A stretch of 64,000 nt of DNA. Origin: Arenicola marina. Taxonomy: Eukaryota > Annelida > Polychaeta > Arenicolidae. Shown here piece by piece: positions 1-64,000 of this stretch. How positions within the stretch are numbered: position 1 is the stretch's first letter; the number at the start of each line of letters is the position of its first letter. The notes beneath the pieces were generated by a model, which saw only the letters and a list, made by a program, of their open reading frames with translations, had not been told where the DNA came from and searched no databases. The stretch lies in NCBI GenBank assembly GCA_964019135.1, contig OZ025248.1, positions 37,379,670-37,443,669 of the forward strand. Direction: 5' to 3'. The translations under genes and the position numbers were made by a program.

Positions 1-539
1 CACAAAGGACGGATATTAATCAAATCATGTCTTGTGTCAGCAATCGCAATATGACTCATAGCATTTCCAGGTAAACGGGGAATTCCTTTTGTGAAAACGG
101 TTAGTCGCTGAATCACCCGGCCGCCTACCGTGCGCTTTCAGCGATGTCGGCATTTAGCCCAGATATTCATCATGTAACGGCCGTTAGCTGGTCAGTTCAC
201 ACAATGGTTGCTGGGACAACCGGTGAAAATGGCGATTCATGGGTGAGAGATTTAAAGGGAGTTGGGACATATAATTTACCAATCTGAGACAGTGGCGCCC
301 CCATACAGAACCATCTCACAGAGCTGTTTGGCGTCTCAAAACGAGTCGGTTGCCTTGTTGGTCTCGGCGTTCATTTGACCAGTAATCGGATCAGATGCCG
401 GCTTGTTTGAGGTTTCCAAGTGACTTTCTAACACGTCATATATATCTTCATTGTTAGTCGCGGAGTTTCTCAATGATTTTTTCGCAGTGACGAGACTCGA
501 AAAAGAAGAGGAATGAAATGTTGGTATATTAGGCCATCG

Positions 540-705
540 TAATGCACGCGAAGACTTAATGGGGACTTCTCAGATAAAAGATATGCTTCTGGGTCAAGCA
601 TGCCCCTTATGGAGCTGCCGGGGTGCGAACCCATGGCCTGTTGAACTACAGCTCAGCCTGCTTACCAACTGAGCAACTTACCCACTGGGGAGTCCCCTCG
701 TCGTG
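540..705 (-). repeat. tRNA-derived SINE relic, copy 1
   Basis: Read on the minus strand, this has a tRNA-like head with an A-box-like TTGCTCAGTTGG (665-676) and a B-box-like GGGTTCGCACCC (621-632), followed by a body of about 80 bases ending near 540. The box spacing suits an RNA polymerase III internal promoter. It is not a working tRNA gene because the acceptor and anticodon arms do not pair convincingly. The same insertion lies at the same place in copies 4 and 5, and partly in copy 3, so it predates the duplications. The parent tRNA is not identified. Confidence 0.6.
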
Positions 706-975
706 CGGCCTCCTCTCTTCGATGGTATCATCAAGGCTGCTGAACAGATTCATGTGATTGGAGGCCGCTGAGCACAGCCGAAAACAGAGCTTAGGTCCCA
801 GCAGAGAAGCCAGCCAAGGAAATTAAAGGGTTGGCGCATGGGTTGGGGAAGGCCGGGGTACCTGCCGGTAAACACGGAGACCGGAAGTAATCTTTATGTT
901 ACATCCTGGCGCCTGGCGCAATTGACCTGAAGGCTTCCTACATACGTACAGGCGTACGTGACGCCTCAAAGATAT

Positions 976-1470
976 TATGTTTTTATGTTGCTCGCTACGA
1001 ATTCGCAATGATAAGCTGGCTCGTCCGCAGCTTGTTTCCTGGCAAGAAAACAGAACACAATGTATGGGATTGGAAAGGGCAAATTTATTTGCCGAGTGAG
1101 AAAGACACTACATGGCAAGCAAATTGTCAAATTAATTAAATAAAAGTGGCGGAACACTTCCCCACTAACTGGCGCAACACTTCGCCAGTAATTGGCGGAA
1201 CGCATCGCCAATAAACGTGAATTTGATCCCGTGTTATTTTGACATATTTTTTCGCTTAACTCTTCCATTGTGATCATTCGACAACAGAATGTCTATATTT
1301 TTCAAATTCTGTGTCAAAAATTCCATATTCAATCTAAAAGAACCCTCGAAAACCCTTCGTGACCCCAGGACCGTTGGGGTCAACCGTGAGGTGGGTGGCG
1401 TGGGGCAGAGGTGATGCGAGGAACGAGCTCCCTTTGCCGGCAGAGATCAAATTTGCATACATACTATGAG
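976..1470. other. Foreign segment replacing 2-3 kb of unit in copy 1
   Basis: After GCCTCAAAGATAT, copy 1 leaves the sequence shared by copies 2, 4 and 5 and rejoins near GTGAAGCCTTTGCCCTTTAA (about 1,493), the equivalent of 16,853 in copy 2. The replacement contains three 23-bp hairpin units (1,147-1,215). Read in reverse, it also contains a stretch (about 985-1,120) that aligns with 57,688-57,815 of copy 5, including AAATTTGCCC and GAGCCAGCT. It is therefore a dispersed element present in both orientations. Its class and exact ends are not resolved; 1,340-1,440 shows nothing I recognise. Confidence 0.55.
1147..1215. repeat. Three 23-bp hairpin repeats
   Basis: Units at 1,147-1,169, 1,170-1,192 and 1,193-1,215. 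Each starts TGGCGSAAC; the second and third carry CGCCA downstream, so a TGGCG/CGCCA stem can form. In reverse orientation they resemble the 33-34-bp units at about 57,470-57,664, with around 10 bases missing per unit. Confidence 0.75.
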
Positions 1471-3694
1471 ATAACTATTGACTTCTTTTGAGTGAAGCCT
1501 TTGCCCTTTAAAAAAACAAATAAATTATTTCCTTCAGCTTGACAGAAACGTATTATACCGCCGTTGTCCGAAGAAGCGTATTGGTGGCTATTAATGCACG
1601 TTTAAAAGTATTTTACTCATCTCTCCTTTAATGGAATTCAACAACGATGTACTGCCATTTTCAGAGAGGGTGGCTGATTATTGTTAACGCCACGCATTAC
1701 GTCCCAGAATACAATGCAGACAAACCGACGACATCTCTTAAGCTTTGATTTGGAAACATTGCTTATATGACGATGACGATGACTGGTTTGGCAGGGTCAT
1801 CATGCAGAGGGATCATTGTGGCCGAGCACCGTTACCACCAAATAAACATCAACTTTGCCGATCTACCCTCGGGTATCAAGCGGTGAGCCGACAGCAATCC
1901 CCTTCTGACAGATCACCCAGATTGAGATCCATCCATTCAGCCTCTCATCAATGCAGATTCGGCAAATACTCGACCTAGCAGCCAGGGCGGAACTGGTATG
2001 ACGTCATATCCTGGTGACAATGGCGCCGTCGCTAGTACGTTCCAAATGGCGACACAGTCGACTAATGACGACTGAGATGACGTGAGATTTGAACTGCTCT
2101 GAGCCTAAGCCAATGCGCAGTTAACGCAAATAGTTTTACAATAAAACATGGCCGTAACAATGCAGATATATTACGCGCTGTATAAACTGTTCACGATGCT
2201 TGAAGACTTGGTCATCTGACAGAATGTAATGACGGCCAGTAATAGTGCACTGGCCTATAGATATACGAGTCACGGTGGTTATAAATCACTCCATCCATTA
2301 CCCACCGCGGGCGATTCAACGCGTGAACCATGTGATGAACGCCCCGTCCATATGGGCTATTTGTAAAAGCTAGTCTCCGCTATTAACAGAAGACAAATTG
2401 CCTCAACATCCAGTAGTTAATTCCCTTGCTTATTGCCTGTGAAATGAAAAAGTTCTATACGAGAGGAGGGCGATCACAGTCAGACATGCAGGCACGCGCC
2501 CTACTGGATATCGCATTTGTTGCCGGACATGTAAATTACGTGCGAGAAAACTCTCTGTTCTAGAGCTACTTCACAACTCGCGGCTCCCCACCGATAAAAC
2601 TTTATCGGCTGCTCGTCGTAAACAAAACCTGTTCCTGTCACTGATAGTGCTGGGGGACACGACTGCAGACCGTAGGCGATTGGGGATGAGAAAGGGGGGT
2701 GGAGTCAATGGTGATCTCTATCAGCATGTTACTGCAATGCGTCTACACTAGGTTCAAAGTCGACTGGGGGGTGGACCTGTGCAGGCAGCGATATCACACC
2801 GGCTAGGACTAAGACTAGGACATAAACTGAGATTCTAAGTAGGCTGAAGCAAGCCATGGATCAAAATGAAAACAGTACATTTTCTGCGGAACTAGATTTC
2901 TCACCCATTGAACTGGCTTCTTTGGCTCAATACCTGGATTAAAATACCCAAATCATATATGTATGATATAATTTTTTGAAACTATACCCATCGTAATAAT
3001 CACACCATTTTGTGCTTCACAGAGAGAGCAAATCACCTGCTGCCCAGAGAAATAGGGACTTCCATGTCGCGTCAAATTACGCCAGCTAGCCTCGACCTCT
3101 CGTAAAGAGGGCCGCGGGAGAAATGTTCGCCTGCAAGGCGGTCTCAAGAGAAGCCAGACTGTGCTTCCAGGGTCTGTTCATGCCGGTCACCCTGTGTCGG
3201 GAATCTCACCAGGGTAGCATTTCCCAAGTACTGGTCCCCACCCAGTCCAAGTGACGCTGGGCATGAGTTTTACATTCTGTTGCGCATTTTGTTTTTCATT
3301 TTACCCGAAATTCAACATATAATTAGTCAAATTTCAATTCAAGAGCAATAACGCGACCCACATTTCCACAATTTTGCTCACTTACTCCCAATCACGTCTT
3401 TACCAACCTTTCGCGTATAATAACACCGACACGATAGACACATTTAAAATAAGTACAACGGTAGTAACCACCCAAGCAAATGAGACCCAACGGTCATGCC
3501 GTCATGTCAACAAGTACTATCGTCTAATAATAGCTCACACATTACTCATATATATTATTCAGATTTTCGGTGGGAAATAAGGGCAATAAATTATGAACAT
3601 GACTGGTCTATCTTTTATTTCATAATAAAAGGATAACCTAAAATGAAGTCATTCGCTCCAGAAACATGTTCTGCCAGAGAAAGCATTTTTTCCC

Positions 3695-3904
3695 GTGCGC
3701 TATCTACACAAGTACTTTATATCTAACCGCGAGACGCATACCAGGTACGCCAGCGGCATGGTGGCTGCACGGTTATCTGGTGGAGAACACGATCTGGATG
3801 CCTTTATCAGCAACTGGCGCGACATGGCACTGCGGCTTCTAGCAGTGAATGATCTCAGACGAAATGCTCTAACGAGGGTTGAAGGCTTAGAAAATGAGCT
3901 GTGA
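3695..3904 (+). other. Short conserved plus-strand frame, copy 1
   Basis: A 69-codon frame ending in MALRLLAVNDLRRNAL, then TRVEGLENEL and a stop. Copy 3 (35,645-35,869) keeps nearly the same protein end to end, with SNRETHAWYARGMVSARLSG and the same C-terminus. Copies 2 and 4 keep the first half (GMVSARLSG) but then carry an extra T-rich stretch and end in SSSE. Copy 5 keeps only the C-terminal half. I do not recognise the product. The frame may be a relic exon or may be open by chance in a conserved repeat. No ribosome-entry or splice evidence settles it. Confidence 0.22.
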
Positions 3905-5030
3905 CCTATCAGATTCGACTTCATGGTCCACGAGGAAACCGTTAATGCTAGGTGTGGGTCCCCGTTAAGGGACCACGGGTAGGGCCTGGGGGTGGATTTG
4001 TGGCCCAGTCCCCAGCCGCCCCTGGAGCACTTTCAGCGTTAAAATTTATGGTGCACTTATTATGTAGTCACAGGAGTGCTGATTCGAGGCGCGTGGTTGG
4101 TCTGGCGAATGGCGTCTGCTGACACTCTGCTTCGTATCCCTGGGCAGATCATACCAACACCCTTACACACACACACGACACACTAGGGATCTTTCCTTCT
4201 TTCAGTTCACTTTAGACTATGATGGTTGTAGGTTTATGTAAGCTACTGCCCATATAGAATGATCTCTGCAAGGGGCAGTGCAAAATTTAAAAAGTGTTTC
4301 ATTGAAAATGCTGTAAAATACCACCTGCTGGTATCAGTCATATGCAAGCACAAGACGTAGTTTTGGCAGCTTTATCATTACAAAGGTATTACAAAGGTTA
4401 CGAAGCATTATTTTGCCCTTAGTGCAAGCTTGCCTGAATGGAAAAATACGCACATGATCAAACACTGGCTTAGCGTACGGGCTTAGCGCACGCACCATAC
4501 AAAAATGCATGGCAGGAACAACCCCCATTATTTCTTTCAACAGTCAGCCAACCCAGGCGCTACCAGTCACCGCGGGTTCCCTCACATCAGCTCCATGAAT
4601 CCCCAATAAACAGGGCAACAGAAGCATGTGGGGCAATGAAACCATCACACATCACGTCCCAGGCAGGTATATACGGAGCGGCATCCTTGTGGCCAGCTTC
4701 CTCAGATGTTTTTTCTCTCTAAATGTGACTCCTTGGTATGTCTTGTTAATGCGTTAGACGTCTGAGAATGTAGGATGTGAGGGTGTGGGTGTAGCGTCAG
4801 TAGGGGGCGGTGGCAACGTCCCCAGCAGCCCTTCTATCTATCCCAACCTCAACGGGGGCCATGCAATCTTCCCCGCCCTCCTCAGCACCACCTGTCATCG
4901 CCAGTGCCTTGTTACTCCTTGTTTGGCGTGAGGAAGAAGCCCTGGGTCCACAACGTGACGGGGGTCGCGCGACATGCGGCCTCACCCGAACGCTTTCACC
5001 GCTGAGGCCCCCAAGAAGACTAGTAACAGA
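3740..5030 (+). repeat. Block conserved in all five copies
   Basis: This part of the unit is retained in every copy (about 19,060-20,470, 35,690-37,045, 49,450-50,830 and 59,570-60,960), while most other parts are missing from at least one. It includes GACGAAATGCTCTAACGA, a GTCCCCGTTAAGGGACC imperfect hairpin (3,959-3,975), GAGGCGCGTGG, a (TA)n tract of variable length in the other copies (for example 36,197-36,208), and the exon-like minus-strand segment near 4,570-4,720. Retention may be chance or may mark the functional core of the unit. No gene is assigned. Confidence 0.6.
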
Positions 5031-6807
5031 CTGTCGTGGGTTAAAGCAATATATTCCGTAACTTTTTGTATTACCAACCTCTTCTCCATGTCAAATAAGT
5101 ACACTCTGTCTTGAATTTAAATCCTAAAAGCTTGTGGGCTATCCGGAGAGAAGCAATTTGGTCACCGGAGCAGAAGTTGGTGGCCGGCTTTATATCCCTT
5201 GCGCGCCTGTTCGCAGTTCGCTATTTTGTGTGTGATGTCGACCGCGGCTCGCTATCAGGTCCGCGCGCGATAAAAATAGACCGCGCAGTTTTATGTTGAA
5301 ATGTTTGTTTTACAGGCTCAAAGAGATATAAAACATATGCATCATAATTTTTCAGATACTTTTAGTCTTGATTCTAAAATGTAAAAAATCTAAGATGGCG
5401 CATGTAAGTATATTGCTTTAAGTCGCACCGTGTTCCTTTCTCTACTGTACCTCCACAAATAGTGATTCAATTCCGTCGTATAGAACAACGTGGCATCACA
5501 TATCGTAATTCTCACACATTAATAAGCATTTTATAAAAATAAAATATATAGATACTTTCAATTACTGTACTTAATACATTGTGAAAGGGAATTAATATGT
5601 TTGCATCAAGACTTTGTCCTACATCTCAACATGGCTCTACGAACGGTTTCCATTAATAAACAACTGTAATGTTAGCCCGTAACGAGATGCCCAAGTTGTA
5701 TAGCCCAACACGGGGAGAACCTGCGATCCTCTGATTGGATAGCTAATTTGTCGGATACCGGGGTAACTGATGTCCGCATAATCACTCAAAAACATGTATA
5801 CCAAGAAAAATAAACCTTTCCCGCCTTCATAATGGTAAGCTATAAATGGTAAGCATGTCAACAAAATATTTTCAGAACAAAGGTTTGGTTGGGTAATTAT
5901 TTATTCGAGTGAACAATGGTAATTGCATGACGCAAGTAGTCCGGACAATATATTTGAAACAATATAAATTCCTGTGAACCCTGTCTGTGGTTTATTTCCA
6001 TCAAATGGAGATGATATAAAGATTCGGCGTATATTCAAGCTAAATTGCCCACTTGAATATGAGAAGGCTGCAGAGACTGTGGTACCATATTACATAATTT
6101 GGTCTTCCGATGATTAATGCGCTAGGTGGCCTGGCCGTCTTTCGGGACAGGCCATGTACCTGACTCGCGCATGCGCCCGGGATTGCCCTCAGTCTGATCT
6201 ATATACATGTGTCTGCCGACCAACCACCAGACAATCATTTCACTTCCGTCCCATTACAGCATGGAAAGGGTTACATTCCCCCCTCCTGTTCCAAGCAATT
6301 AATTACTGGGTGTGAAAAAAGGGACGTTTCTAATAGCTATAACGAAGTCAAACGAGTGAAGGGTGGAAAGCAAAAAAAGAACTGGTTGATCTAATGAATA
6401 CTTAAGCGGGCAAGAGAAAAGCAGACTTGTTTGAAGCAACTTGTTTGTGACCGGGCTATGTTTACTGGAAATGTCCCTGGTGGAGCAGCCAGACGGCTGC
6501 TCCCTGCCCCACCTGCCACCCCAAAATGAAATCCGACATTTCGTTGACTTTCTGGCTCCAAAATTGTCTTTCTAGGTTTCTACTCGGCAGGTGGCCAGTT
6601 ATTTCCAGTTGCTTTCATTGTATTATCACGCAGGTCAATTTGTCAATGAGGTTATACCTCATTTTGCTCAACCATGTCAAAGTGTTTAAATCAATTATCA
6701 CCCACACATAATCCCATGCGGTCGTACTGCATATAACCTTCGTATCGCCTGAGACAACATTAATGTGGTACTCGTTAAGCCATGGCAGGGTAGGCTGAAA
6801 CCATCCT

Positions 6808-7297
6808 GAGATATCAGTAATATGGATTGCGCCAGCGGTACAGGTCAAGCCATGGCCGAGTGAGCTGAAGCCATCCTGAAATATCAGTAATATGGATTGC
6901 GCTAGCGGTACAGTTAGAGCCATGGCCGAGTGAGCTGAAGCCATCCTGAGATATCAGTAATATGGATTGAGCCAGCGGTACAGGTCAAGCCATGGCCGAG
7001 TGAGCTGAAGCCATCCTGAGATATCAGTAATATGGATTGCGCTAGCGGTACAGTTAGAGCCATGGCCGAGTGAGCTGAAGCCATCCTGAGGTATCAGTAA
7101 TATGGATTGCGCTAGCGGTACATGTCAAGCCATGGCCGGGTGGGCTGAAGCCATCCTGAAATATCAGTAATATGAATTGCGCTAGCGGTACAGTTAGAGC
7201 CATGGCCGAGTGAGCTGAAGCCATCCTGAGATATCAGTAATATGGGTCGCACTATCGGTACATGTCAAGCTATGGTCGAGCTGGCTGAAGCGATCCA
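6808..7297 (+). repeat. 70-bp tandem array, 7 units, copy 1
   Basis: Seven units start at 6,808, 6,878, 6,948, 7,018, 7,088, 7,158 and 7,228, each exactly 70 bp, with a partial unit just before them. The unit contains ATATCAGTAATATGGATTGC, GCTAGCGGTACA and GCCATGGCCGAGTGAGCTGA. A variable site alternates between a GTCAAG form and a TTAGAG form from unit to unit, giving a 140-bp dimer periodicity. Copy number elsewhere is 3 (copy 5), 1 (copy 4) and 0 (copies 2 and 3). Overlapping frames on the minus strand are by-products. Confidence 0.95.
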
Positions 7298-7535
7298 CCT
7301 GAAGTCCAATGTGACGATGCTCGTCGTCGTGACCCCATTCGGCAGCCTACGCAGTAGATTGCTGGGGTCATAGGGATTGCTTTCATGGAGCTGTCATCGC
7401 ATTGTCTCTATGGTAACATGGCATATAACACCAATTCATCCATGGATCCATCAAGTCTCTTACTCTGATCTGAGTCTTTCTGTACTCAGGATTTACACCC
7501 TTTCCGCCAGCCCACCCCACCCTCAACGGTATCCC

Positions 7536-7618
7536 AGGTTCAACCACACACCCCACACCCCACACCCCACAAACAACAATTCACACCCTACACACCACCC
7601 CCACCAATCACCGCCAGC
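7536..7618 (+). repeat. C-rich CCACACCCCACA tract, copy 1
   Basis: A run of ACCCCACACCCC-like repeats with an irregular period of about 5-8 bases. Matching tracts lie at 24,728-24,893, 38,668-38,812 and 62,382-62,512, and copy 4 breaks off inside its tract near 52,716-52,736. The C-run clusters could form i-motifs, with G-quadruplexes on the other strand; that is inference. Confidence 0.8.
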
Positions 7619-8029
7619 CACGTAGTGCAGTGTTATTTTATTGTCAACCTCCTTTTCACTTGCCAACAACGACGAGGCTCCAGCTATACGGTCCGCCCGG
7701 AAGTGCCAGATAGCTACAAAAAGCCAGCCCTGACTGACCACCCCAGTGCCATCCCCTGGGGGCGTCACACGCTTCCCGCGCACCAATCGAATCTCTCAAC
7801 CGTTAATTTATTATCTACAAACCCCCAGTGCCAAAAGGGGGTACAGACGGAAAGTGAGTTAAGGATCATGTCTACGATAAAGAATTAGACGCCGAGACAT
7901 GTGGTCTCATGGCGCACACAAAAACTGTAATCTTTATTAAATTTATTATTGTTGAATTACAGCAAGCATTATATTGCACATATAGCCAGGTGCGACATGA
8001 AGAAGATGCGCCACTTAATTCCGTTGTAG

Positions 8030-8311
8030 CTAATGTAAGAACAGCTGCCTGACGCAAGAACCCAGTAAGTGCTGGTACGGGCAGTTCATAAAAGACGGAA
8101 GCAAAAATGCGCACATGTCGGCCACAGGTTTTCGTGTTTTATCCAGAGCCATGTCTATGGCGTTCGCCGCGATATTCCACCGGCACTCAGGGATTCCGCG
8201 GTACTTCGCTAATAGCAACTGTATTGCTTTAGTGGAATCATACCCGTGTCTTTTTTCCGAGATATCAAACTGGAGAGCACTATCTATAGTCTGAGATAAA
8301 AGCGCAGCCAT
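8030..8311 (-). pseudogene. Conserved minus-strand frame of unknown product, copy 1
   Basis: A 93-codon frame starting MAALLSQTIDSALQFDI and containing GYDSTKAIQLLLAKYRG, then WNIAANAIDMALDKTRK and PYQHLLGSCVRQL. Composition is protein-like, with no repeat underneath. Homologous codons stay in frame in copy 2 (25,351-25,537: GYDSTKALQLLLAKYRG, WNIAANTIDMALDKTRK) and copy 5 (62,994-63,165: WNIAANPMDMAQDKTRK). Copy 3 has a deletion and a stop. A start ATG in a plausible AATATGG context exists only in copy 1; copies 2 and 3 have a nearby stop. I recognise no family. It is the best coding-relic candidate, but a second frame over 7,872-8,114 is equally open in three copies, which weakens it. Confidence 0.3.
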
Positions 8312-9076
8312 ATTTCAATTATAGGAGCCAAAAGCTGCAGTAATGTATGGTGCATTAAAATCGATTCTCGTAGGTAACTTAGAAGCACAAGCTTCCATTA
8401 CCAGACAAAAGTGCGTGAGGGGGGTGGGGCTTTTAGGGTTTTGGGGGGTGGAGGGTTAACAGAGTGGCGAAGGAGAGGATTTCGGGTGGGGAGGGTGGGG
8501 GTGTACAATAGTGAGCGACATGACCAACACGGGTGCAATACTGCGAATATGAGGGTACATCGGGCGGAGCGGATGGATATATTTAACTATGCCCCCCCCC
8601 CCACCCTACGTTACCTGGCACCTGCCACCCTCCCGTCTAGACCCAACGTCATTTGCATATGTATTCTGCCAGATGGGCCATGATCATCGTCAGCTAATGC
8701 TGACCGGATTAAACCACCAATTGAGTCTTTCCATCATGACAAAGGCACGTATTGCAAACGGTTCAAAATAAATCTCATCAGCTATTATTTGCACCACGAG
8801 ATGCAAACATAATTTCGCGAAAACTTGTATTTTCGCTTGTTTTTAGGTTTTTCAGTAGAGATACGCTCACATCCTCAAATATTGACCCCATTATAATGGC
8901 AAACATATGTCCGGGGCCCTGCCTTCCTCACTGTTTACTATGATAAAGGTCATAGAACCATCCTCACCCGATGTAGGCGGGGAAAAAAAGTTCAACGCCA
9001 TTGCTGACAGCTCCGGAGACCGATAATTACCGGAGATGTCAAATCCCGGAGCAACAGTTTCTCCACCAACAATGGC

Positions 9077-9145
9077 GACCCCATGACAGTATGGAATGTG
9101 ACCCCATGACAGCATGGAATGTGACCCCATGACAGCATGGAATGT
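9077..9145 (+). repeat. 23-bp triplet specific to copy 1
   Basis: Three units of GACCCCATGACAGYATGGAA plus TGT at 9,077, 9,100 and 9,123. Copies 3 (about 40,164) and 5 (about 63,878) have a single unit before GTAAGCC. This is a recent local amplification in copy 1. Confidence 0.92.
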
Positions 9146-10195
9146 AAGCCAAACAAATCCCACGACAGGATTGAATCAGATCGTTCAAACAACACGGACA
9201 TCAAGCGTCCATTCGGGTTTGCCCTTTTACTCCGAGACATTTTAACTGCCCCGCACTGAATTCTCTCATTTCCTCTCACGTGATCGGTCTGGCGGCTGCG
9301 TGTTGGCTTGAGGTATTTTGCAATGAGGGTTTATCGTTAGTTTGCCGTGGCGAGAGGGTCTATACATACCCCGGACAATGGTGTCATTGATCGGAGAGGT
9401 GCTGCGGGAGGCCATCGGTCGTCACATTGGACGCACCGAGTTATGGCCCTAAGCCAGGAACCTGAATGTTCATCATTTCCCATCAGGAAGTCTGCATTGG
9501 ATTGCATTCAATGATCTGTCTGCGTCATTGTCTACATCGCTGGGGCTTTTTTTAACTGTAACTGTCGCAGCATCTTTTAATACGATGGCGGATTCGGAAT
9601 GCATAGAAAGTTGCACCCCCATCATTCCTCTCCCTAGATTAAAAGATTCTGAATCTGTCCGTGGGATACAGGTTATATGCGGATGCCCATTTCCTTAAAA
9701 CGGCTCACGGAAGGGTGGTGTCCTCTTTCCAAACGCCATCCTGAAGGCCTATGACACTCAGCCTCGATATCGATTGGCTTCCCTCTCCACCCTATACCAC
9801 TAGGTTCCTGGGTTGGGATTAACCGGGACACACCCCACTTTCTGATATATCTTGGCTCGGTACCCTATCATATATCGGATATACAAGGCGCATTAGAATG
9901 CATTGTATATTTTGATAACATCGATAAAGTGTCTACACCCTTGTGACGATGACCTATGTCATTCCCCTTTTATACTCTCTGAGCTACTTACCATGTGTTG
10001 CTCGAACATGTGAATTGTTTTTCATCAACCCTCCAATTAGGTACGGCTTCCAAGTACCCACTTACGGTGTTCTGAGAGACCGCCCCATTCCTTTCCCGTC
10101 CCCAACCCCCTTCCCCGCCCCTAACTACCTTCTCATCCTAAGTCCAAGAAGCGAGTTGGGAAGGGGTGTCCCCCTTTGGTAGCCACCAACAATCA

Positions 10196-10495
10196 CTGGC
10201 AGGAAATGTCGTCTGCTGTCAGTGGCATGGAATATTGTCTGCCGCTAGTCGCAGGAAATGTCTTCTGCTGTCAGTGCTAGGAAATATCGTCTGTTGTCAA
10301 TGGCAAGAAAGGTCGTCTGCAAATGTCGTTTGCTGTCAGTAGCAGAAATGTCGTCTGCCGCTAGTGTCATGAAATGTCTGCTGCTAGTGTCATAAAATGT
10401 CGCCTGCCGCTAGTGGCAGGAACTGTAGCCTGATGTCAGTGGCAGCAAAGGTCGTCTGTCGTCTGCTGCTCGTGTGGTATAAAAGGTCATCTGCC
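10196..10495 (+). repeat. 26-bp tandem array, about 11 units, copy 1
   Basis: Degenerate 26-bp units with the core AAATGTCGTCTGCTGTCAGT and a GGCAGG or GGCATG end. Several units are shortened (near 10,315 and 10,375). The array ends at the conserved CCTCCTACRCACAGGGA sequence, as in copy 2. It is missing in copy 3, and the region is not reached in copies 4 and 5. Confidence 0.9.
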
Positions 10496-11257
10496 ACGAG
10501 GGGCCTCCTACGCACAGGGAGGCCGTGTTGCGCTTCTCCTGGCTATGATACCATTGATTACAAAATTACACCGAGTCGTACTCACCGTCTTTATACGACC
10601 GCATAAATAGGCGACTTTACCATACGCTGTGCTGTGCTGTGCCGATCTGTTGCGTTCACCCTTCCGCCGCTTTCCTCTTGGGTCATTCCCGGTCTTTTTG
10701 TGTATCTTCCTCTCTGAGGACCCCCTTTTCCCTCTCCCCGGCGGCTGGCTAAACTTCCTCAGTCGTTCAGCATACTTTTTTTTTCTAACATTTTACAATT
10801 TCATGTGCCATAGATTTGATCATTTTCATTTCCGGTTGGCACACTATATACATAGCCGGGTATTGATATTCTCAAATTTGCAGCCGGTATCCCACGATAG
10901 GATAGGCCCACCACGAGGGGCTCTGGTTGAAGAACTGCACTTGAAACGCCCATTTGGTGCTCAGTAAGTACAAACCTGGGATTCGCAGACGGACGGATGG
11001 CATCAACCATCAACCAGATAACGGGAAGGGAAGGGCGGCCCGATACCGGGCCAGACTAGGCGGGCGTAGAAAATAAATTGACGCACTTACCTGATAGGTG
11101 TCCTAGATCCACTATGCGGCAAGACGTGATCACGTCTATGTGGTCATGTGCACAGATTGGCTCATGATGGGTGACTCACTTGGTCAGTCAATCAGGGCAA
11201 TGGAGGGGAAATAGAAAGACATGTAAATGTTCGTGTCTACGGGATCATGTCAGCATT

Positions 11258-15112: not shown

Positions 15113-15153
15113 AGCACAACATATCTTGATCTCGTCGTTGTTTGCTTTTCCAG

Positions 15154-46795: not shown

Positions 46796-46829
46796 CATAT
46801 CTTCATCTTTTCGTTGTTTGCGTTTCCAG

Positions 46830-53402: not shown

Positions 53403-54265
53403 CCTCGCCCTGCGGCCTCCTCTCTTCGATGGTGTCACCAAGGCTGCTGAACAGATTCGTGTGATTGGAGGCCGCTGATCGCAGCCGACGACAAAGCTTA
53501 GGTCCAACCAGAGAAGCCAGCCAAGGAAATTAAAGGGTTGCCGTATGGGTTGGGGAAGGCCGGGGTACCTGCCGGTAAGTAATCTTCATGCTACATCCTG
53601 GCGCCTGTCGCAATTGGCCTGAGGGCTTCCTACATACGTGCATGCGTACGCGACGCCTCAAAGGATATTGCGTTGTTATAGCCCTGGCATATGAGATGCT
53701 TTAAAAACTTCTGTTTCTGATCGAGGCATGATTAGCGAAAAAGTAATATGAAATACGTCTGCCATTTCATGTAATCGACCCGTATCCTATCATATTGAGG
53801 CCGTTATATCATTATATCATATATACGTCATCATCCGACACGAACTTCGTTCAAAGCCAGGTCAGGTAAGTTATGTTTAATGTCTTCCACAAGCAGTTAC
53901 CAGGCTAACTCTGTGTGTGCAGTTTAGGGGGAATAAACGAGGTGTTAGTCTGCGTTTGTTCAGAGCTAGCACCTCTACCCGCATAACCTGTCAGATATAT
54001 ATTCCAAACATGGATGAACTCATCCATCAGTGTGACTGCCTGGCTAACAATTCAATTTGCACGGTATGCCGACTCACTTATCGGGGGATTGGTCAAATAG
54101 ACAAGGACGACGTAGATTGGCAGGGCACACCCGGGATGTCAGTTGTCTGAGCGGGTGATATCTACATCAATCCAGGATAGCAGACAATCTTCTCCCCCCC
54201 CCCCACTCTACCCACCCACACAAAAGCACAACATATATCCGTCTTCTCGATGTTTGCTTTTCCAG

Positions 54266-54455
54266 GAACCACCCTCCTGCATGGCGCGTGGCAGAATACC
54301 AGGTCGCAGTGGGCATGCCAGACAGAGTCATGGGTAAGCTACCAAATCTCGCCACCCATCGCGCTAGAGGTGGAATCTTTTAGAGACATCCACGTAATGT
54401 TGCGGGGCGTAATGAATAAGGGACGACGATGGTTGATTTCATGTGTCAGATGAAT
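54266..54455 (+). other. Acceptor-flanked, exon-like segment, copy 5
   Basis: Follows TGTTTGCTTTTCCAG and reads TTLLHGAWQNTRSQW, with LRGVMNKGRRW downstream. The segment is more diverged than in copies 2 and 4. The acceptor-like signal itself is well kept. Confidence 0.2.
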
Positions 54456-56152
54456 AGATCTGCCTTTGTTGTTACCATCCGGAATGAAGCATTCAGGCTC
54501 TTATCAAACTTTTGCTCGCGTTTGTACGTTTAACACACACCACCGTGTGATCCAAAAGTAGCCTAATAACTATAATGTGCAGGCCATTCATCCCGCATCC
54601 GTCCTTACTAGAGCGCTGTATTGACCACCAATGTTAATTTCTTGACAGCTATCGCTGTTGAAATAGTACCCCCCCGTGACTTACTTTAGCTGGTATATAT
54701 GTAACTACATGTTAACGTATTTCTGCACTTTGACCCGCTTGTGTTTCCCTTCAATGAACTCCAATCCGTGCGGGCGGAGAAGGTGGATGACTATTATGCT
54801 GATGTTGTAGCTTAAAGAAAACAGGTCATTGTGGCTGCCACGATCACCCCTCCCCACGCAAACACCCCCTCTTACCCGGAATTTTAATAATGATTAATAG
54901 GCCGGCACGCGTGCACCATGTGTGTGGCCTCACTGCTCTGAAGTGAGGTCAGAATGTATGAATCCTTGGCCTGATCGATCGCCAGGATTGACTTACTCTC
55001 CTGGTGAGCCATGGCGCATGTAAAGCATGAGGGTGGGAGGGGGGTACTTCCGCCATTTCAAAGACAGGAAACCGGAAGCACCGTTTGGCTGACGATTTTG
55101 GGGAGGAGTGCATGGGGATCGCCATGAAGTTTGGTCATTGCAGCCCACGCTCACTACTCATCAATGTTCAGACATAAATCATCCCTAGCTCATCTGGTAA
55201 ACATGCCTCCCTCTAATCTCCATCCAATCCCCAACCTGATTTACACACGGCTTCCGTGCATAGTCATCGCTATCAATTAGTCGCCGGGTTCATGGATTGC
55301 AGTCGGTTTATGCGATCCACCGGTCCTGAAGGAAGGCCGACAATGGCGATCGCTCGTGGTACTGCCAGAGACTACTTCAAAGGCCGTCCATCATCATATT
55401 CTAAGACAAACCTAGAAGTGACGTCACTTACTCTCCTTGAGTAGTCCTCCATCCGATGGTTCGCTGGAACTGTCCCTGGAATCGCTTAAACGCCATCGAA
55501 ATAAACCGCATCTAATAAATTATTACACCCGTCATTACGCAGTGGCACAAAGCTTTTCGCAGTCAACAACGGAGTGTGTAAATATAGGATAATGACGTAA
55601 AAGTCATAGCTTGTAGTAAGTTTGACAATTTTTTTTAAATATTTGTATGAGAACGAACGTAAACTTTGTAGCAAAGTATTGCGTAAAACTTACAATTAAT
55701 TATTTACACATTTTTCATTTAAAACGGTTGTCGTGCCATGGATGTAATTAAGTAGCATATTAATTCATTATCTGCGCAATACGTTAGCCCTACATGTGTA
55801 CCAAGAGATAGCTTTTGACTCTAATGATCTGTTCCAAGGGTTTGCCCTTGAAAAAAGAACAGATAAATAATTTCTCCTAGCTTGAAAGAGATGCATTATT
55901 CCGGCCTTGTCCGGAGACACACTTTTGGTGGTTACTAATGCACGTTTAAAGGCAACAAAGATGTATTGCCATTTTCAGAGAGGGTAGCCGATTATTTCTC
56001 ACACCGCCCATTATGCCACATAATACAATAGTAGACAAACCAAAGTGGGATTGGTTGACCCCTACATTTAGCACCTACAAGCACCACATAACCAGTGCAC
56101 ACAAATGAAACGAAGATGAAAATGGAATGGAACGTCGAAGAGTTGTTTTGTG

Positions 56153-56295
56153 TAAATGAAAGGTAAACTGGACCAAGCAACAACCTGGGATACCGGAAGA
56201 AGTGTTGGACAAACATTAGATACTGTCGCGAAAAAACACGACATTTTGATGTACAGCTCAGGCCGCTTGCTTAGTGAGATGGGGAGGCTCCTTAA
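56153..56295 (-). repeat. SINE relic, copy 5 (third insertion site)
   Basis: Ortholog of 17,078-17,195 and 34,093-34,233, with ATGAAAGGTAAACTGGACC at one end and TACAGCTCAGGCCGCTTGC at the other. The next 100 bases, to about 56,400, also match copy 3 (34,234-34,345). Confidence 0.42.
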
Positions 56296-56935
56296 TAGAA
56301 TGATCACAGGCACTGGCACATAATGTGTGGTTCTGACAACCAACACCGCATGTTGTCTTCTGATGGTGTCATCCGTCATCTTGCGAGCGTGGTGGCCATG
56401 GAACATTAATGACATTAATTATAAAATTAAGACATGTTTTATTTTCCTGCTTATTAATGACGTTTCGATTAAACACAAGGGTTCCATGTTGTTTTTCTCA
56501 ATGTAATAGTAATATGGGCCGTTAAACTACAATAAAACCAAGCGAATCAACCAGACGGGAACGAAATAATAATTCTGATTACTCAGAATTTACTTTATGG
56601 CTGCGCGGAGAATTATTGGAGTACTACATTATGGGAATACTTGTTGGTATCACCCCTACCCGATGGTGAGAAGAACGAATGGACTCGTCCAAGTAGAATC
56701 CCCCTGACAACGCGGATTGTTTACCGATTAGCGTCAACCGCGAGACGATGTAGCGGCAGTTTACACGGGGGTTCACCTGATTCTCAACCACCAACGAAAT
56801 GAACCACCTCCTCCACACCGCCTCCACTTTGCATCGACGAGAGTCCACAGGTCTGAGCATAATATCATGAAATGTCTGCTGATAAGAGGTCATTAGGTTT
56901 AAGCAATAATAATACAGTATGCAACTAGATGAGAT

Positions 56936-57290
56936 GTGCTTACGAGCTATTTAAATATCGTATATAATCATTCTATCATTAAGCCATATTATTATTAGTA
57001 TTACAGCATATGCGAGTGGATAATTTCAGAATTGTCTGCAGAAAGGAGTTATTATATTGTAAAATATAATACATTTTGAAATGTGATGACCCGTATTTGT
57101 GAGGCATTTATATATCGTATATAAGTATCTTTATATCACGTCTTATTGTAATTTTTATCTCGGCATATGTATTTGGATAATTTCAGAAATATCTACTAAA
57201 CTAAGTTAAGTTTAAAGAAATAATTCATAGTAAACTATGATGATCCCTAGATCAGTGATTTCCATATTTGTACGAGGCGTTTGTCCCCTC
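56936..57290. repeat. Degenerate AT-rich monomers of about 160 bp
   Basis: TTTAAATATCGTATATAA (around 56,950) recurs as TATATATCGTATATAAG (around 57,107) at a spacing of 157 bases. GTGGATAATTTCAGAA recurs as TTGGATAATTTCAGAA, and a third, poorer start (CATATTTGTACGAGGC) lies near 57,262. Two and a fraction monomers are visible. Nucleosome-scale length and AT-richness resemble satellite DNA, but the array is too short to classify. Confidence 0.65.
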
Positions 57291-57469
57291 AACTTCCCTG
57301 CTATGTATGAAGGCAACATTCATTTTTTTATGGCCTTTCATAAATATCCATAGTGGACTGCATAATGTGGTGTGTATATATATATATCAATAAGTATACA
57401 TTAATATTTGCCTGTCTAACATCTGATTGCCACAGATGTGTATTACATTTAATTTGTGTTTGCCACTAT

Positions 57470-57664
57470 ATTTGTCATTAGCGAGGTGTTTTCGCCTCAA
57501 CAATTTGCTTGGCGATATGTTTTCCGCCAAATGTTTTTCCATTTGCGACGTGTTTTTCGCCACATGTATATTAGTGGCGATGTGTTTTACCCGCCACATC
57601 TTTATTACTGGCGGTGCTGTTTTCCGCCACATGTTTATCAGTGGCGATGTGGTTTTTCCGCCAC
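57470..57664. repeat. 33-34-bp hairpin repeats, about six units
   Basis: Read on the minus strand, about six units start GTGGCGGAAAA or similar and contain TCGCCAC some 17 bases on, so each unit can fold into a GTGGCG/CGCCAC hairpin. Five units are 33-34 bp long. Thirty-three bases equal eleven codons, which explains the open, periodic frames here on both strands. The family also occurs at 1,147-1,215. Confidence 0.82.
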
Positions 57665-57815
57665 TGATACTCTTGAACCTTTGGAATCTTGCAATAAATT
57701 TGCCCTATCCAACAACTTACATAACTCTTTGTGTTATTCTATTACAATACAGGTAAGGGGCTGCGCGCGAGCCAGCTATATCACCCTTTCGTAGTGCAAG
57801 ACATAAATGCTATTT
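57665..57815 (+). other. Tail shared with the copy 1 foreign segment
   Basis: GCAATAAATTTGCCCTATCC, then CTCTTTGTGTTATTCT and GAGCCAGCTATATCACC, align with the reverse complement of about 985-1,120 in copy 1 (AATAAATTTGCCCTTTCC, CATTGTGTTCTGTTTTC, GAGCCAGCTTATCATTGC). The two lie at different points of the unit and in opposite orientations, as expected for dispersed copies of one element. Confidence 0.6.
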
Positions 57816-59041
57816 CTGAAATGAAACCAAAGCTCAAAGCGTAAATCGATTAGAAATTTAATATAATAATAGTTCATCGGCCTAAGATATACTAGCCAAG
57901 GCGGTTATAACTCACTCTATGTTACGATGGGATATAATACCAACTCCATCCTTAATTCGTTAAGGGCGATTCAACGCGTGAACCATGCGATGGATTCCCC
58001 GTCCATATGGGCTATTTGTAGCAGATAGTCTCCGCCATTAACAGGAGACATGCCTCAACACCCAGTAGTTAATATTCTTGCTTTTTGCTTGTCAAATGTA
58101 AAAGCTCTATACGAGAGGGGGGGGGGGGCGATCCAAGTCAACCAGAGTGTTAAATATGCCAAACAATGAACATCTTTGATCCAGTTGTTCTTATCACCCT
58201 CACACAATGAGACAACTGTAGTCATGCCGCCAGCGAATGCCCACACGCGTCCTGCCGGATATCGCATTTGCTGCCGGACATGTTAGTTAGGTGTGAGAAA
58301 ACTCTCTGTTCTAGAGCTACTTCACAACTCGCGGCTCTCCACCGACAAAACTGTATCGGCTGCTCATAAACAAAACTTGCTCCTGACATTGATGGTGCTG
58401 GGGGACACGACTGCAGACTGTAGGCGATTGGGGATGAGAAAGGAGGGTCGGGTCAGTGGTGATCTCTATCAGCATGGCGCTGCAAAGCGTCTACAATAGG
58501 TTCAAAGTCGACTGGGGGGTGGACCTGTGCAGGCAGCGATATCACACCGGCTAGGACTAAGACTAGGACATAAACTGGGATTCGAAGTAGGCCATGGATC
58601 TAAATGAAAAAAGTACATTTTCTGCGAAACTCGATTCCTCACCCATTGAACTGGCTTCTGTGGTTCAATACCTGGATCAAAGTACCAAAATCATATATTT
58701 ATGATATAATTGTTTGAAACTATACCCATCGTAATAACCACACCATTTTGTGATTGCACATTCCCTGTAGACTACCACCAGCAATAGTCAGCATAAGACT
58801 CACGCACTCACTGTGATTCTGATACCGTCTCTGGAGTGAAACAAAGTCCTTGCACCAAGGTAGATATTACAATATATTGTGCACCTATATGATGGCATGC
58901 TCGCCCTGTAACCGGAAGCGAGGTCTCCGCTCAGCACACCTTCATTAATCCGAGATACAAGAGAGCGCAAATCGCCTGTTGCCCAGAGAAACAGGGACTT
59001 CCTTGTCTCGTCAAATCACACCAGCTCGCGTCGACCTCCCG

Positions 59042-59103
59042 CACAGGCACAGTAAATCAGTGGAGGGGGGAGGCCGGGGGGGAGGGGGGGGTAGGGGCCT
59101 GTG
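59042..59103. mobile_element. 62-bp deletion derivative of the MITE
   Basis: Begins CACAGGCACAGTAAATCAG like the 249-bp element, runs through its G-rich left arm, then joins directly to CCTGTG. It is flanked by its own 8-bp target duplication ACCTCCCG (59,034-59,041 and 59,104-59,111). Empty sites are ACCTCTCG at 3,095 in copy 1 and ACCTCTGG at 35,329 in copy 3. It therefore transposed independently in its shortened form. Confidence 0.87.
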
Positions 59104-60469
59104 ACCTCCCGTAAAGAGGGCCGCGAGGCAACGGATCGCCTGAAACGGCGTCTCAAGACAAGCCAGACTGGGTTTCCAAGGTCTGTTCATGCCGGTCACC
59201 ATGTCTCGGGTGTCTCACCGGGATAGCATTTTTCCAAGTATTGGTTCCCGCCAAGTCCAACTGGAGCTGGGTAACAGTCTTACATTGTGTTTCGCATTTG
59301 GTCGTTTCATTTTACCCGAATTACAACTTACAATTAGTCGAAGCACCACGAGGCATTGCATTTCAAGAGCAATAACCTTCTGAAAAACGTCGTTCGCCCA
59401 GGTTAACGCAACCCACATTTCCACAGTTTTGCTCACTTTCTCCCAAGTAAAGGCACGCGTGGTCTATTTTGTGTCTATAATGAAACGGAGTCATTCGTTT
59501 CAGAAACATTTTCTGCTACAGAAATTAATTTTCCCGTGCACGGTTATCGTGCACCGTGCACGCTTATCTGGTGTAGAACACGATCTTACGATCTTTATCA
59601 GCAACAGGCGCTCGCAGTGGTGAGCGATTTGTTTTCTTTCTTTTTTTCACTGGGCGGCATGGCACTGCGGCTTCCAGCAGTGAACGATCTCAGATTAAAT
59701 GCTCTAACGACGGTTGAATGCTTGGAAAATGAGTTGTGACCGCCGATCAGTTTCGACTTCATGGCCCCTGAGGAAGCCGTTAATGATAGGTGTGGGTCCC
59801 CGTTAAGGGCCTGGGGGTGGAGCTGGGAGACTGTGGCCCAGTCCCGCAGCCGCCCTTGGAGCACTTTCTGCTGCACTTATTATGTAGCCACAGGAGTGCT
59901 GATTCGAGGCGCGTGGTCGGTCTGGGGAATGGCGTCTCCTGACACACTACTTTATTTCCCCGGGCAGGTCACACCAACGCTGTTAAGAAGCACACACGTA
60001 ACATTCGGTTTTTGTTCTCCTCTGTTGGTCCATTTTGGACTATGATAACGTGTGGTGTATGTAAACTACCGTCTGTGTGTATATATATTATCTGCGAGTG
60101 GCATCACAAAATTTATGTTTCATTTAACAGGTTGTAAAATATAAGATGAGTGCTGGCATCAGTCATATGCAAGCGCAAAGGGTAGTTTTGGCCTTGATAT
60201 AGCTTTATCATTACAAAGGTATCGTTACGAAGCCATCATTTTGCTCTTAGTGCAAGCTTGTCTGAACGATAATATAGGCACATAACCAATCAGCCTAACC
60301 CGTGGGTGATAAGAGGATGATCTGCGGTCATAAAATCTCCAATATCCTTTGGAATGCATCAATGAATAAGCAAAGTTATTAGAAAGGACTTGCGTGCGTC
60401 AAACCCCCGATTGTTGCTTTTAGCAGTCCGGGAAGCCAGACGCTACCAGTCACCACGCGGTCCATCCCA

Positions 60470-60625
60470 TCAGCTCCATAAATCCCCAATAAATAGGGCA
60501 ACGGAAGCATGTGGGGCCAATGAAACCATCACACATGGCATCTAACGCACATTTAATGCCCTGTATATACCGAGCGTCCTCCTTGTGGCAAGCTTCCTTA
60601 AATGTTTTTTTCTCTGTAAATGTGA
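60470..60625 (-). other. Exon-like minus-strand segment, copy 5
   Basis: Counterpart of 20,033-20,180, with an acceptor-like CATTTACAG and the frame KTFKEACHKEDARYIQGIKC then CPIYWGFMELMG. The donor-like GTGAGG of the other copies is changed here to a GGGATGG context, so the frame runs on to a stop near 60,450. Most differences from copy 2 leave the frame open, but I have not tested selection. Product unknown. Confidence 0.22.
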
Positions 60626-61712
60626 CTCTTTGGAATGTTAATGCGTTAGGGGAATGTACGTGCGCTGTCAAGTGATGGGCGGAGTGATGTGGGCGCGGAG
60701 TAAGGCGGGAGTGGGTAGCATCAGAAGGGGACGTTAGAAACGTTCCCAGCAGCCCTGCTATCTCCACGGGGGCCATCTTCCCGCCATCATCGGGGAATCT
60801 TCCCCGCCCACCTGTCATCGCCATTGCCTTGTTACACCTCGTCTGCATAGAGGAAGAAGCTCTGGGTTCACAACGTGACAGGGGACGCACGACATGAGGC
60901 CTCATCCGACCGCTTTTACCGCGGAAGCCCCCAAGAAGACTAGTAACAGACTGTCGTGGGTTAAGTCGTACCATGTTGAATATCGAGTCGTCCGACGACT
61001 AAACTGATGTCCATATCATCACTCAAAAACACGTTTAACAAACATAAGGTATACATCTCAAATCCAATAAATAGCTAGGTTGGCAAGGGTAAAAGCAGAT
61101 ATGTTTGAAGCAACTTGTTTGTGACCGGGCCATGCGTATTGGGAATGTCCCTGGTGGAGAAGCCAGAGTACTACTCGGGATTCCTCACGTACAACTCTAA
61201 TACTACAGTCCCAGCACGGCTGTTTGCGGCATGTCTGGATGGCTACCATGCCAAATAGAAGCAAAACAACATACATCCCTGGCGGAACCAGTGGGTGGTG
61301 GGGGGAGGAGGAGGGCACAGGGTTCGTCTACCTATTTTGTCTTGCCTAAGTTGAATTCACTTTTTGGAGAAGACCCCCCTCCTCCCTGGTCCCATCCCGT
61401 GCCCCTCCGCCCCCCCCCCCCCCACCCCCCTCTCCTCGCTCCTCTGAAGTTAAATCCGACATGCTGTTGACTTTTGAACTCCAAAATCGTTTTCTAGATT
61501 TCTATGCAAGGCAGGGGCAGATTATTTCCAGTTGCTTTTATCGTATCATCACGCAGGTCAATTTGCTAATGAGGTTAAACCTCATTTTCCTCACCCATGT
61601 CAAAGTTTTTAAAACAAATATCACCCCCACATAATCCCATGCGATCGAATCGCCTGAGACAGCAGTAATATGATACTCGTTACGCCATGACCGGGTGGGC
61701 TGAAGCGATCCT

Positions 61713-61922
61713 GAGACAGCCGTAATATGGATTGCGCTAGCGGTACAGGTCAAGCCATGGCCGGGTGGGCTGAAGCTATCCTGAGATATCAGTAATATGG
61801 ATTGCGCTAGCGGTACAGGTCAAGCCATGGCCGAGCGAGCTGAAGCCATCCTGAGATATCAGTAATATGGGTCGCACTATCGGTACAGGTCAAGCCATGG
61901 CCGGGCGGGCTGAAGCGATCCA
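61713..61922 (+). repeat. 70-bp tandem array, 3 units, copy 5
   Basis: Units begin at 61,713, 61,783 and 61,853, again exactly 70 bp. All three carry the GTCAAG form of the variable site, so the alternating dimer seen in copy 1 is absent. The last unit has GTCGCACTATCGGTAC, shared with the last unit of copy 1, which suggests the array edges are ancestral and the interior was amplified. Confidence 0.93.
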
Positions 61923-62381
61923 CCTGAAGTCCAATGTGACGATGCCCGTCGTTGCATCTCCAACACGTAGTGAGCAATGAGCATTATGTGGTGTGGCGTG
62001 GACGGTGTATATATTAGACTGGGCGCAGCTGTTACTCGCCTGCGGTAGTATAATTCACATCAGGCTACCGAGACAACCGGCATCGTGGACACACGTGTCT
62101 CTGAACTCAATGATCTGGCTTAAAGCCCAGCTCTGGCTGGGTATGATGCCGAGGGATATAGTGATGTTTAACCGAGTCGTCGGGGTCGAAACCTATTCAT
62201 AGTAAAGTTCCTCTATAAGGATGACCCGATGGCTTGCAACGATTAAGAGCGAGTGACCTTGGCGTGACTCTATTCCGCCTACTCCGCAGTGGAGAGATCG
62301 GGTCCTGGGGATTGCTTTGTGTAGCTTTTAACTCATTGTCTCTGTGGTCCGTCTGTACCCATGGTACACACTCTTCCCGCC

Positions 62382-62512
62382 ACCCCACCTCCCCACCCCC
62401 ACCCCCACGATATCCCACGCTCAAACCCACCCCCCACCCCCCACATCCTACATCTCTCCTGCCACACTCCACACCCCCACACCCCACACCCCACACACCA
62501 CACCCCATAGCA
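62382..62512 (+). repeat. C-rich tract, copy 5
   Basis: Ortholog of 7,536-7,618 with ACCCCCACCCCCACGATATC and CACACCCCACACACCACACC. The long frames on both strands here come from this biased composition. Confidence 0.8.
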
Positions 62513-62993
62513 GCCAAGTATTGTACCGACATTTTTTGCGGTCAACCAGGTTTCGCGCAGACCATGATTCCTTCCCGCTCGCCATGTGACTAACCAACAA
62601 CGACGTGGTTCGCCAGAGGGAGCCACCAGACGACGGGCCGATGGGAGGTGGCTCCACATATACGGTCTGCCCGGAAGTACCAGACAGATACAAAAAGCCA
62701 GCCTTGACTGAGCACCACCAGTGCCATTCCCTGGGGGCGTCACACGCTTCTCGCGCACCAATCGAATCTCTCAACCGTTATTCCATTACCTACAAACCCC
62801 CAGTGCCAAAAGGGGGTACAGACTGAAAGTGTGTTAAGGGTCATGTCAACGATAACGAATGAGACCCCGAAACATGTGGTATCATGGCACACACAAACTG
62901 TTATCCGTATTACATTTATTATTGCCGAATTACAGCTATATATTCCGCATACAGATAGGTGCGACGTGACCGAGATGCATTGTAGCTAGTGTA

Positions 62994-63165
62994 AGAGTAG
63001 CTGCATGAAGCAAGAACCCAGTAAGTGCTGGTACGGGCAGCTGATAAAAGACGGAAGCAAAAATGCGGACACGTCGGCCACAGCTTTTCGTGTTTTATCC
63101 TGAGCCATGTCCATTGGATTTGCGGCGATATTCCACCGACATTCAGGACTTATTTCTATTACAAT
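62994..63165 (-). pseudogene. Remnant of the conserved minus-strand frame, copy 5
   Basis: Homologous to the middle and end of the 8,030-8,311 frame, reading SPECRWNIAANPMDMAQD and SAFLLPSFISCPYQHLLGS. The N-terminal part is missing because the unit carries a deletion just beyond 63,150. Product unknown. Confidence 0.25.
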
Positions 63166-64000
63166 ATTTGAAGGAATGTATGGCGCATTAGTGAAGTAGT
63201 TTCGTAGTTAACTTGAAAGCACGATGTTCCTTTAGCGGTGTGTATGGGGGGGGGGTGCTTTTACGGTTTTGGGGGATGGAGTGCTAACGGAGTGGTGAAG
63301 GAGAGTATTTTGTGTGGGGAGGGTGGTGGGTACAATAGTGAGCGACATGACCAACACGGTTCGAAATTGTACCATTTCCACCCTATCACCCCCCCCCCTC
63401 ACCCCCACACCCAAGGCCCCTACCCGGTTTATTTGCACACATATAATCCTACCACATGGTCATCATCAGCCCATGTTGGACGAATTAAACCCCCACTTTA
63501 GTCCTTCTATCATAACTAAGGCACTTATTGCAAAAGCTTCAAAATAAATCTCATCAGCTATTATTTGCACCACAAGGTGCACAGTTCACTTTGAGGAAAA
63601 CTTGTATCTGTTAATTTTTAGGTTTTTCAGTAGGGATACGATTACACCAGTATTTTCAAATATTAACTCTATTATAATGGCAAACCCATGTTCGGGGCCC
63701 TGCCTTTGTCAGTGTTTACTACACACGTGAACAAGTCCATGGATCCACCATCAGCAGGCTGAAATAAACAGAAATGTTCAACGCCACTGCTGACAGCCCC
63801 TGAAATACACAGTTACCGGAGATGTCAGATCCCGAAGAGACATGTGCCCGGAGCTACAGTTTCTCCGCCAACAATGGCGATCCCGTGACAACGTGAAATG
63901 TAAGCCAAACAAATCCCAGGACATAATTGCATCAGATCGTTCAAACCATCCGTCGCTTAATTGGATGCACCGAGTTATGGTCCTAAGCCAGGAACCTGGG

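What the first reader, a model, noticed from the sequence alone, without database searches (positions are those of the whole stretch)
1..64000. A gene-free macrosatellite with a unit of about 13.5 kb fills the whole window
At least four and a half head-to-tail copies of one very long unit are present and no intact gene is visible. Units this long in tandem are unusual outside rDNA and known macrosatellites, and this one matches neither rDNA nor any gene cluster I recognise. Both ends of the window lie inside a unit, so the array is larger. It may be heterochromatic, sex-linked, centromere-adjacent or a source of long non-coding RNA; which of these is unknown.
Basis: partly seen in the sequence, partly recalled or inferred. 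Interest (0 to 1): 0.85.

Follow-up and report, generated by a model that had tools for sequence, protein, structure and literature searches.

The report
Decayed tandem cluster of 13-kilobase duplications
The window is part of a cluster in which one long stretch of animal DNA without recognisable genes was copied head to tail several times at a single place on one chromosome and has since drifted apart; it is a real repeat, but most likely an old duplication rather than a new kind of working element.

Summary
The repeat is real: with short tandem repeats masked, 53,294 of 59,816 window bases lie in same-strand self-matches, and 5 of 5 Markov controls have none. The window holds four copies and most of a fifth, 7.7-18 kb long and 75-94% identical per block. 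The cluster spans about 128 kb, includes inverted copies, and 35 of 35 matches to four unit pieces lie there. A different cluster with units about 12 kb apart lies to its left. No Rfam match reached gathering; 117 ORFs gave only five weak Pfam matches; shared open frames do not exceed controls. One 25-codon window exceeds its control but is broken in most copies. Divergence is uneven beyond permutation, so local constraint is not excluded; closest relatives change from block to block, which alone could cause that. Best reading: an old local duplication cluster, macrosatellite-like in scale but not in homogeneity. RNA, chromatin and population data were not available.

The parts
1..13631 (+). 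copy 1 of the long unit (used as reference; the phase is arbitrary, set by the window edge)
   Evidence: matches to its start recur at 13632, 44998 and 52736
13632..31650 (+). copy 2 (about 18.0 kb; longer partly because of the 22-bp minisatellite)
   Evidence: right boundary approximate
31651..44997 (+). copy 3 (about 13.3 kb)
   Evidence: left boundary approximate
44998..52735 (+). copy 4, short (7.7 kb): no match to unit 7522-13631 of copy 1
52736..64000 (+). copy 5, cut by the window end; continues to about position 69,030 outside
6777..7296 (+). 70-bp minisatellite inside copy 1; the same repeat lies at 61684-61921 in copy 5
10193..10432 (+). 26-bp minisatellite inside copy 1; counterpart 26934-27434 in copy 2
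21008..23586 (+). 22-bp GC-rich minisatellite, about 117 units, in copy 2; about two units at 37916-37963 in copy 3
42784..43032 (.). foldback (inverted-repeat) element inserted in copy 3, with relatives on many chromosomes
   Evidence: sub-gathering MIR1858 matches on both strands
36497..37108 (+). longest ATG-started ORF outside the minisatellite (203 aa); stops and frameshifts in other copies, no Pfam match assigned

Best explanation
A stretch of about 13.5 kb of DNA without a recognisable gene was duplicated in tandem several times at one locus, probably by unequal exchange. Copies exchanged pieces for a while, part of the cluster was inverted, insertions and deletions changed copy lengths, and exchange then largely stopped, so that the copies now drift mostly without constraint. 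Shown: tandem and inverted copies, single locus, mosaic relationships, no gene recognised. Inferred: unequal exchange as mechanism, mostly neutral drift, and that homogenisation has ceased. It most likely does nothing that depends on the sequence of the unit as a whole.
For: Tandem copies plus an inverted block. 35 of 35 matches to four unit pieces at one locus, all first-look candidates scored. The closest partner of copy 1 changes with the block: copy 2 (94%), copy 5 (91%), copy 3 (90%), copy 4 (89%). 117 ORFs (56 + 61) gave five single Pfam matches with E between 0.0062 and 0.049. Longest frame shared with at least 3 other matches: 60 codons on the real strands, 80 in the reversed and complemented controls. 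No Rfam match at gathering, no tRNA. No pair of copies exceeds 94% in any of 13 blocks.
Against: Identity along copy 1 is not even: its spread (sd 0.039) was reached by 0 of 1000 column permutations, its highest 80-column window (0.955, unit 13449-13528) by 7 of 1000 and its lowest by 9 of 1000; other high windows are unit 814-893 (0.953) and 3825-3904 (0.944). Block-wise exchange between copies could cause this, but so could constraint. One 25-codon window near 60,438 exceeds the codon-score null (21.3 against 16.4). The 25-codon test has limited power. No expression, methylation or population data. Two such clusters side by side hint that the region favours long duplications.
Confidence: 0.66

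Rival explanations
1. Graveyard of an intron-rich gene: the unit once carried a gene with short exons, the tandem copies became pseudogenes, and the remaining exons are too short or broken to be recognised.
For: Tandem gene clusters can have units of this size (general knowledge). The block at unit 4520-5044 has a stretch of about 35-40 codons that stays similar in 6 copies, and the codon score there exceeds the controls. The 25-codon test would miss many short exons.
Against: Only five weak single Pfam matches among 117 ORFs of at least 60 aa. Protein searches with two ORFs match only this locus (5 of 5 and 13 of 13 matches), and 13 of the 16 matches other than the queries themselves contain stops. 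Stops and frameshifts differ among copies.
Confidence: 0.14
2. Functional non-coding array: each unit carries a promoter or protein-binding site, and the array makes long non-coding or small (piRNA-like) RNA, or acts as a chromatin boundary as DXZ4 does.
For: Single locus and long units; internal minisatellites kept in several copies; windows with identity of 0.93-0.955 at unit 13449-13528, 814-893, 3825-3904 and 7695-7775, the highest reached by only 7 of 1000 permutations. DXZ4 shows that an array without an obvious protein can act this way (PMC3218863 passages).
Against: The high windows are short, and block-wise exchange between copies could produce them. CTCF-like sites are not clearly enriched in the window: 20 against 13.1 expected, reached by 7 of 100 shuffles (recalled vertebrate consensus). 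Copies are not homogenised.
Confidence: 0.14
3. Centromere-adjacent or sex-linked heterochromatic array.
For: The locus is near the middle of the 77.0-Mb sequence C1, and a second repeat cluster lies beside it.
Against: Centromere position and sex linkage are unknown. Apart from minisatellites and a dispersed element, the right flank (about window +132 to +164 kb) shows no comparable long self-duplication, and a globin-domain ORF lies at about window +134.7 kb.
Confidence: 0.05
4. Assembly artefact.
For: Long tandem arrays are prone to misassembly (general knowledge).
Against: Copies differ by 6-35% per block with private insertions; 264 kb without any N.
Confidence: 0.01

Closest known systems
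Local tandem segmental duplications / low-copy repeat clusters
   Same: Long units, few copies, one locus, mixed orientation, mosaic relationships and strong divergence
   Different: No recognisable gene in the unit, whereas many studied clusters carry genes (general knowledge)
Macrosatellites (D4Z4, DXZ4, RNU2, SST1)
   Same: Unit of kilobases (2 to more than 12 kb; passage in PMC3218863), head-to-tail order, single locus; DXZ4 is likewise without an obvious protein
   Different: Copies are 65-94% identical per block over the cluster, truncated and partly inverted; polymorphism and transcription unknown; no clear CTCF-like enrichment
Ribosomal DNA
   Same: Unit of many kilobases in tandem (general knowledge)
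   Different: No Rfam match at gathering in the window

Membership tests
Macrosatellite | unit of about 2 to more than 12 kb repeated head to tail | tested here: met
   unit lengths vary and part of the cluster is inverted
Macrosatellite | array restricted to one or a few loci | tested here: met
   35 of 35 matches at one locus; one search scored only 37 of 4911 candidates, and its listed matches elsewhere all fall in one foldback element
Macrosatellite | homogeneous, uninterrupted units (usual feature; DXZ4 is called a large homogenous tandem repeat in the abstract start of PMC3491370, listing only) | tested here: not met
   65-94% identity per block, insertions, truncations and inversion
Macrosatellite | copy number varies among individuals | not testable with these tools
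   only one assembly is held
Ribosomal DNA | carries rRNA genes | tested here: not met
   0 matches at gathering score; at E<=0.1 only sub-threshold MIR1858 matches
Tandem protein-gene cluster | copies share coding exons in frame | tested here: not met
   shared frames no longer than controls; only five weak Pfam matches among 117 ORFs; one 25-codon outlier, broken in most copies; limited power for very short exons
Local tandem segmental duplication cluster | several diverged copies of a long segment confined to one locus | tested here: met

The most novel reading that the evidence does not exclude
The unit is a non-coding element whose tandem arrangement matters: an invertebrate counterpart of DXZ4-type arrays (a transcribed or chromatin-organising array with units about four times longer), with the short high-identity windows as its working sites, and this part of the chromosome is a hot spot that built two unrelated arrays of 12-14-kb units side by side.
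Probability: 0.1. Interest if true: 0.65.

Novelty: new member of a known kind. Interest (0 to 1): 0.28.

Why it matters
It shows how a long stretch without recognisable genes can be amplified at one locus, exchange pieces between copies, and decay, leaving a record of duplication, exchange and inversion. If the units proved to be transcribed or to organise chromatin, it would be a natural comparison for mammalian non-coding macrosatellites. As it stands it is a reminder that a long-period repeat pattern need not mean an active satellite.

Tried and rejected
Rejected: rDNA or another known structured RNA (0 Rfam matches at gathering; at E<=0.1 only MIR1858, below its gathering score and on both strands of the foldback element). 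tRNA genes (0, ARAGORN with the bacterial code). Coding unit: all-copy codon score with reversed and complemented controls (a first version without such controls was dominated by minisatellites), shared-frame test (its first version, timed out), Pfam on 56 of the 67 ORFs of at least 100 aa in the window (the 11 left out overlap the 22-bp minisatellite) and on 61 of the 62 ORFs of 60-99 aa in or just beyond copy 1 (the one left out overlaps the 26-bp minisatellite, count). The scans gave five single-member matches with E-values 0.0062-0.049, which I regard as chance; their scores against the curated cut-offs were not shown. The simulated positive control shows the 25-codon test is weak: 37% of strongly constrained 25-codon exons (omega 0.05) pass the null maximum of 16.3. 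CTCF-like sites: not clearly enriched.

Literature: searches were listings; I saw passages of PMC3599962 and PMC3218863 and the outline with abstract of PMC3018141. None of these searches was aimed at the species, which is unnamed, so I make no claim that the locus is unpublished.

Full report
OBSERVATION. Self-comparison of the window gives long same-strand matches at offsets near 13.6, 31.3, 45.0 and 52.7 kb from the first copy. With short tandem arrays masked, there are 133 same-strand and 2 opposite-strand match pairs at E<=1e-10; the same-strand ones cover 53,294 of 59,816 unmasked bases, and 5 of 5 order-2 Markov sequences gave none. So the repeat is far beyond chance. It is less regular than described: copies start at about 1, 13,632, 31,650, 44,998 and 52,736, and their lengths run from 7.7 to about 18 kb. 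Copy 2 is long partly because of a 2.6-kb array of a 22-bp repeat, and copy 4 has no match to unit 7522-13631 of copy 1.

EXTENT. The window is G000:C1:37,379,670-37,443,669 in a genome of 867,369,267 bases in 762 contigs; C1 is 77.0 Mb. I fetched 100 kb on each side. In window coordinates the cluster runs from about -3.3 kb to about +125 kb: a partial copy to the left, the five copies of the window, another forward copy to about 80.3 kb, inverted copies from about 80.5 to 113.6 kb, and a partial forward copy to about 124.9 kb. Open frames that look like reverse transcriptases lie between pieces of unit near 92.9-96.3 and 115.2-116.9 kb (a Pfam RVT_1 match was obtained for the second, the first was not scanned). 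One mid-unit block occurs 8 times (6 forward, 2 inverted), another 7 times, some of these incomplete.

UNIQUENESS. Four unit pieces searched against the whole genome, all first-look candidates scored, gave 12, 8, 7 and 8 matches; all 35 lie at C1:37.379-37.492 Mb. The search skips very common words, so this is not proof of absence elsewhere. A whole-copy query scored only 37 of 4911 candidates and its list was cut; in the rows listed, matches outside the locus all fall in an inverted-repeat element inserted in copy 3, which has relatives on many chromosomes. The 22-bp minisatellite has looser relatives on many chromosomes (40 of 117 candidates scored).

WHAT IS IN A UNIT. Rfam: no match at gathering score in the window. 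tRNA: none. Pfam: 56 ORFs of at least 100 aa and 61 ORFs of 60-99 aa gave five matches, one ORF per family, E between 0.0062 and 0.049, which I treat as chance. Two ORFs used as protein queries matched only this locus (5 of 5 and 13 of 13 matches; 13 of the 16 matches other than the queries themselves contain stops). Frames that stay open and in register with at least 3 other matches reach 59-60 codons on the two real strands and 80 in the reversed and complemented controls. A codon-substitution score gave one outlier, a 25-codon window near 60,438 (18.8 and 21.3, against null maxima of 16.3 and 16.4). The complement control is itself highest at the same place, the 60-codon score there is 12.5 against a null maximum of 11.1, and translation of copies of this block shows stops or frameshifts in most. 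The test is weak for short exons, so a former short exon there is possible.

HISTORY. In 13 blocks aligned across 4-8 copies, pairwise identity ranges from 65 to 94% (75-94% among the five copies of the window), and the nearest relative of a copy changes from block to block: copy 1 is closest to copy 2 in unit 1-420 (94%), to copy 5 in 2493-3000 (91%), to copy 3 in 3100-3900 (90%) and to copy 4 in 4520-5040 (89%) (several tree splits have low support). This mosaic pattern fits past exchange among copies. Since no pair exceeds 94% in these blocks, exchange seems to have stopped long ago (inference). Identity along copy 1 (7,289 columns covered by at least 4 other matches, mean 85%) is uneven: its spread was reached by 0 of 1000 column permutations, its highest 80-column window by 7 and its lowest by 9 (with 200 permutations no window exceeded the highest permuted value). 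The highest windows are unit 13449-13528 (0.955), 814-893 (0.953) and 3825-3904 (0.944). Constraint and block-wise exchange both predict such unevenness, and I could not separate them without a related genome.

NEIGHBOURHOOD. Left of the cluster, from the end of the fetched DNA (-100 kb) to about -12 kb, lies another cluster of diverged units, many pairs about 12 kb apart, in both orientations. A 3-kb piece of it has 20 matches: most in that stretch, smaller ones at C1:37.11-37.27 Mb and one of 0.7 kb on C14. The two clusters share only 9 short matches (up to 234 columns, 66-83% identity). The right flank from about +132 kb has minisatellites and a 0.86-kb element also found in the left cluster, but no comparable long self-duplication. 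A 3-kb piece of it carries a dispersed repeat, and an ORF with a globin domain (E 2.4e-17) lies at about +134.7 kb.

INTERPRETATION. The evidence best fits an old local tandem segmental duplication without a recognisable gene, once exchanging pieces, now decaying. By unit size and single locus it resembles macrosatellites (PMC3218863 passages; PMC3599962 passages), but it lacks their homogeneity, and polymorphism could not be tested. Limits: one assembly, no RNA, chromatin or population data, no related genome, and no genome-wide scan for similar clusters.

Noticed in passing
C1:37,279,670 to about 37,367,000 (window about -100 kb to -12 kb; L009-L018): A second cluster of diverged units, many about 12 kb apart, in both orientations; some pairs reach 93-94% identity; smaller matches continue to C1:37.11 Mb.
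   Followed up: partly
window about -65,540 (minus strand), in the left cluster: A 25-codon window whose codon score (15.3) exceeds the controls of that cluster (12.5 and 11.4); it lies in an element of about 0.5 kb that recurs several times in the left cluster.
   Followed up: no
window 21,008-23,586: A 22-bp GC-rich, strongly strand-skewed minisatellite of about 117 units in copy 2, with about two related units in copy 3 and looser relatives on many chromosomes.
   Followed up: partly
window 42,784-43,032: A long foldback element; on many chromosomes matches to its arms occur in opposite orientation about 0.7 kb apart, suggesting a larger relative with long terminal inverted repeats.
   Followed up: partly
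L026:660-1811 (+), window about +134.7 kb: Open frame with a globin domain followed by a repetitive tail containing a 27-bp tandem repeat.
   Followed up: partly
L021:8901 onward into L022, minus strand (window about +92.9 to +96.3 kb): An open frame of 1119 codons that looks like a LINE reverse transcriptase (recognised by eye, not scanned), lying inside the inverted part of the cluster.
   Followed up: no
L045 (match G000:C762:7161-8501): Mitochondrial COX1 reads TGA as Trp, has five AGA codons where Ser fits and no AGG; with the protein's general look (recalled) this suggests an invertebrate, perhaps a lophotrochozoan.
   Followed up: partly
window about +125.8 to +131.9 kb (L025, L026): A 6.2-kb minisatellite with a 17-bp period, about 373 units, just beyond the right end of the cluster.
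   Followed up: no
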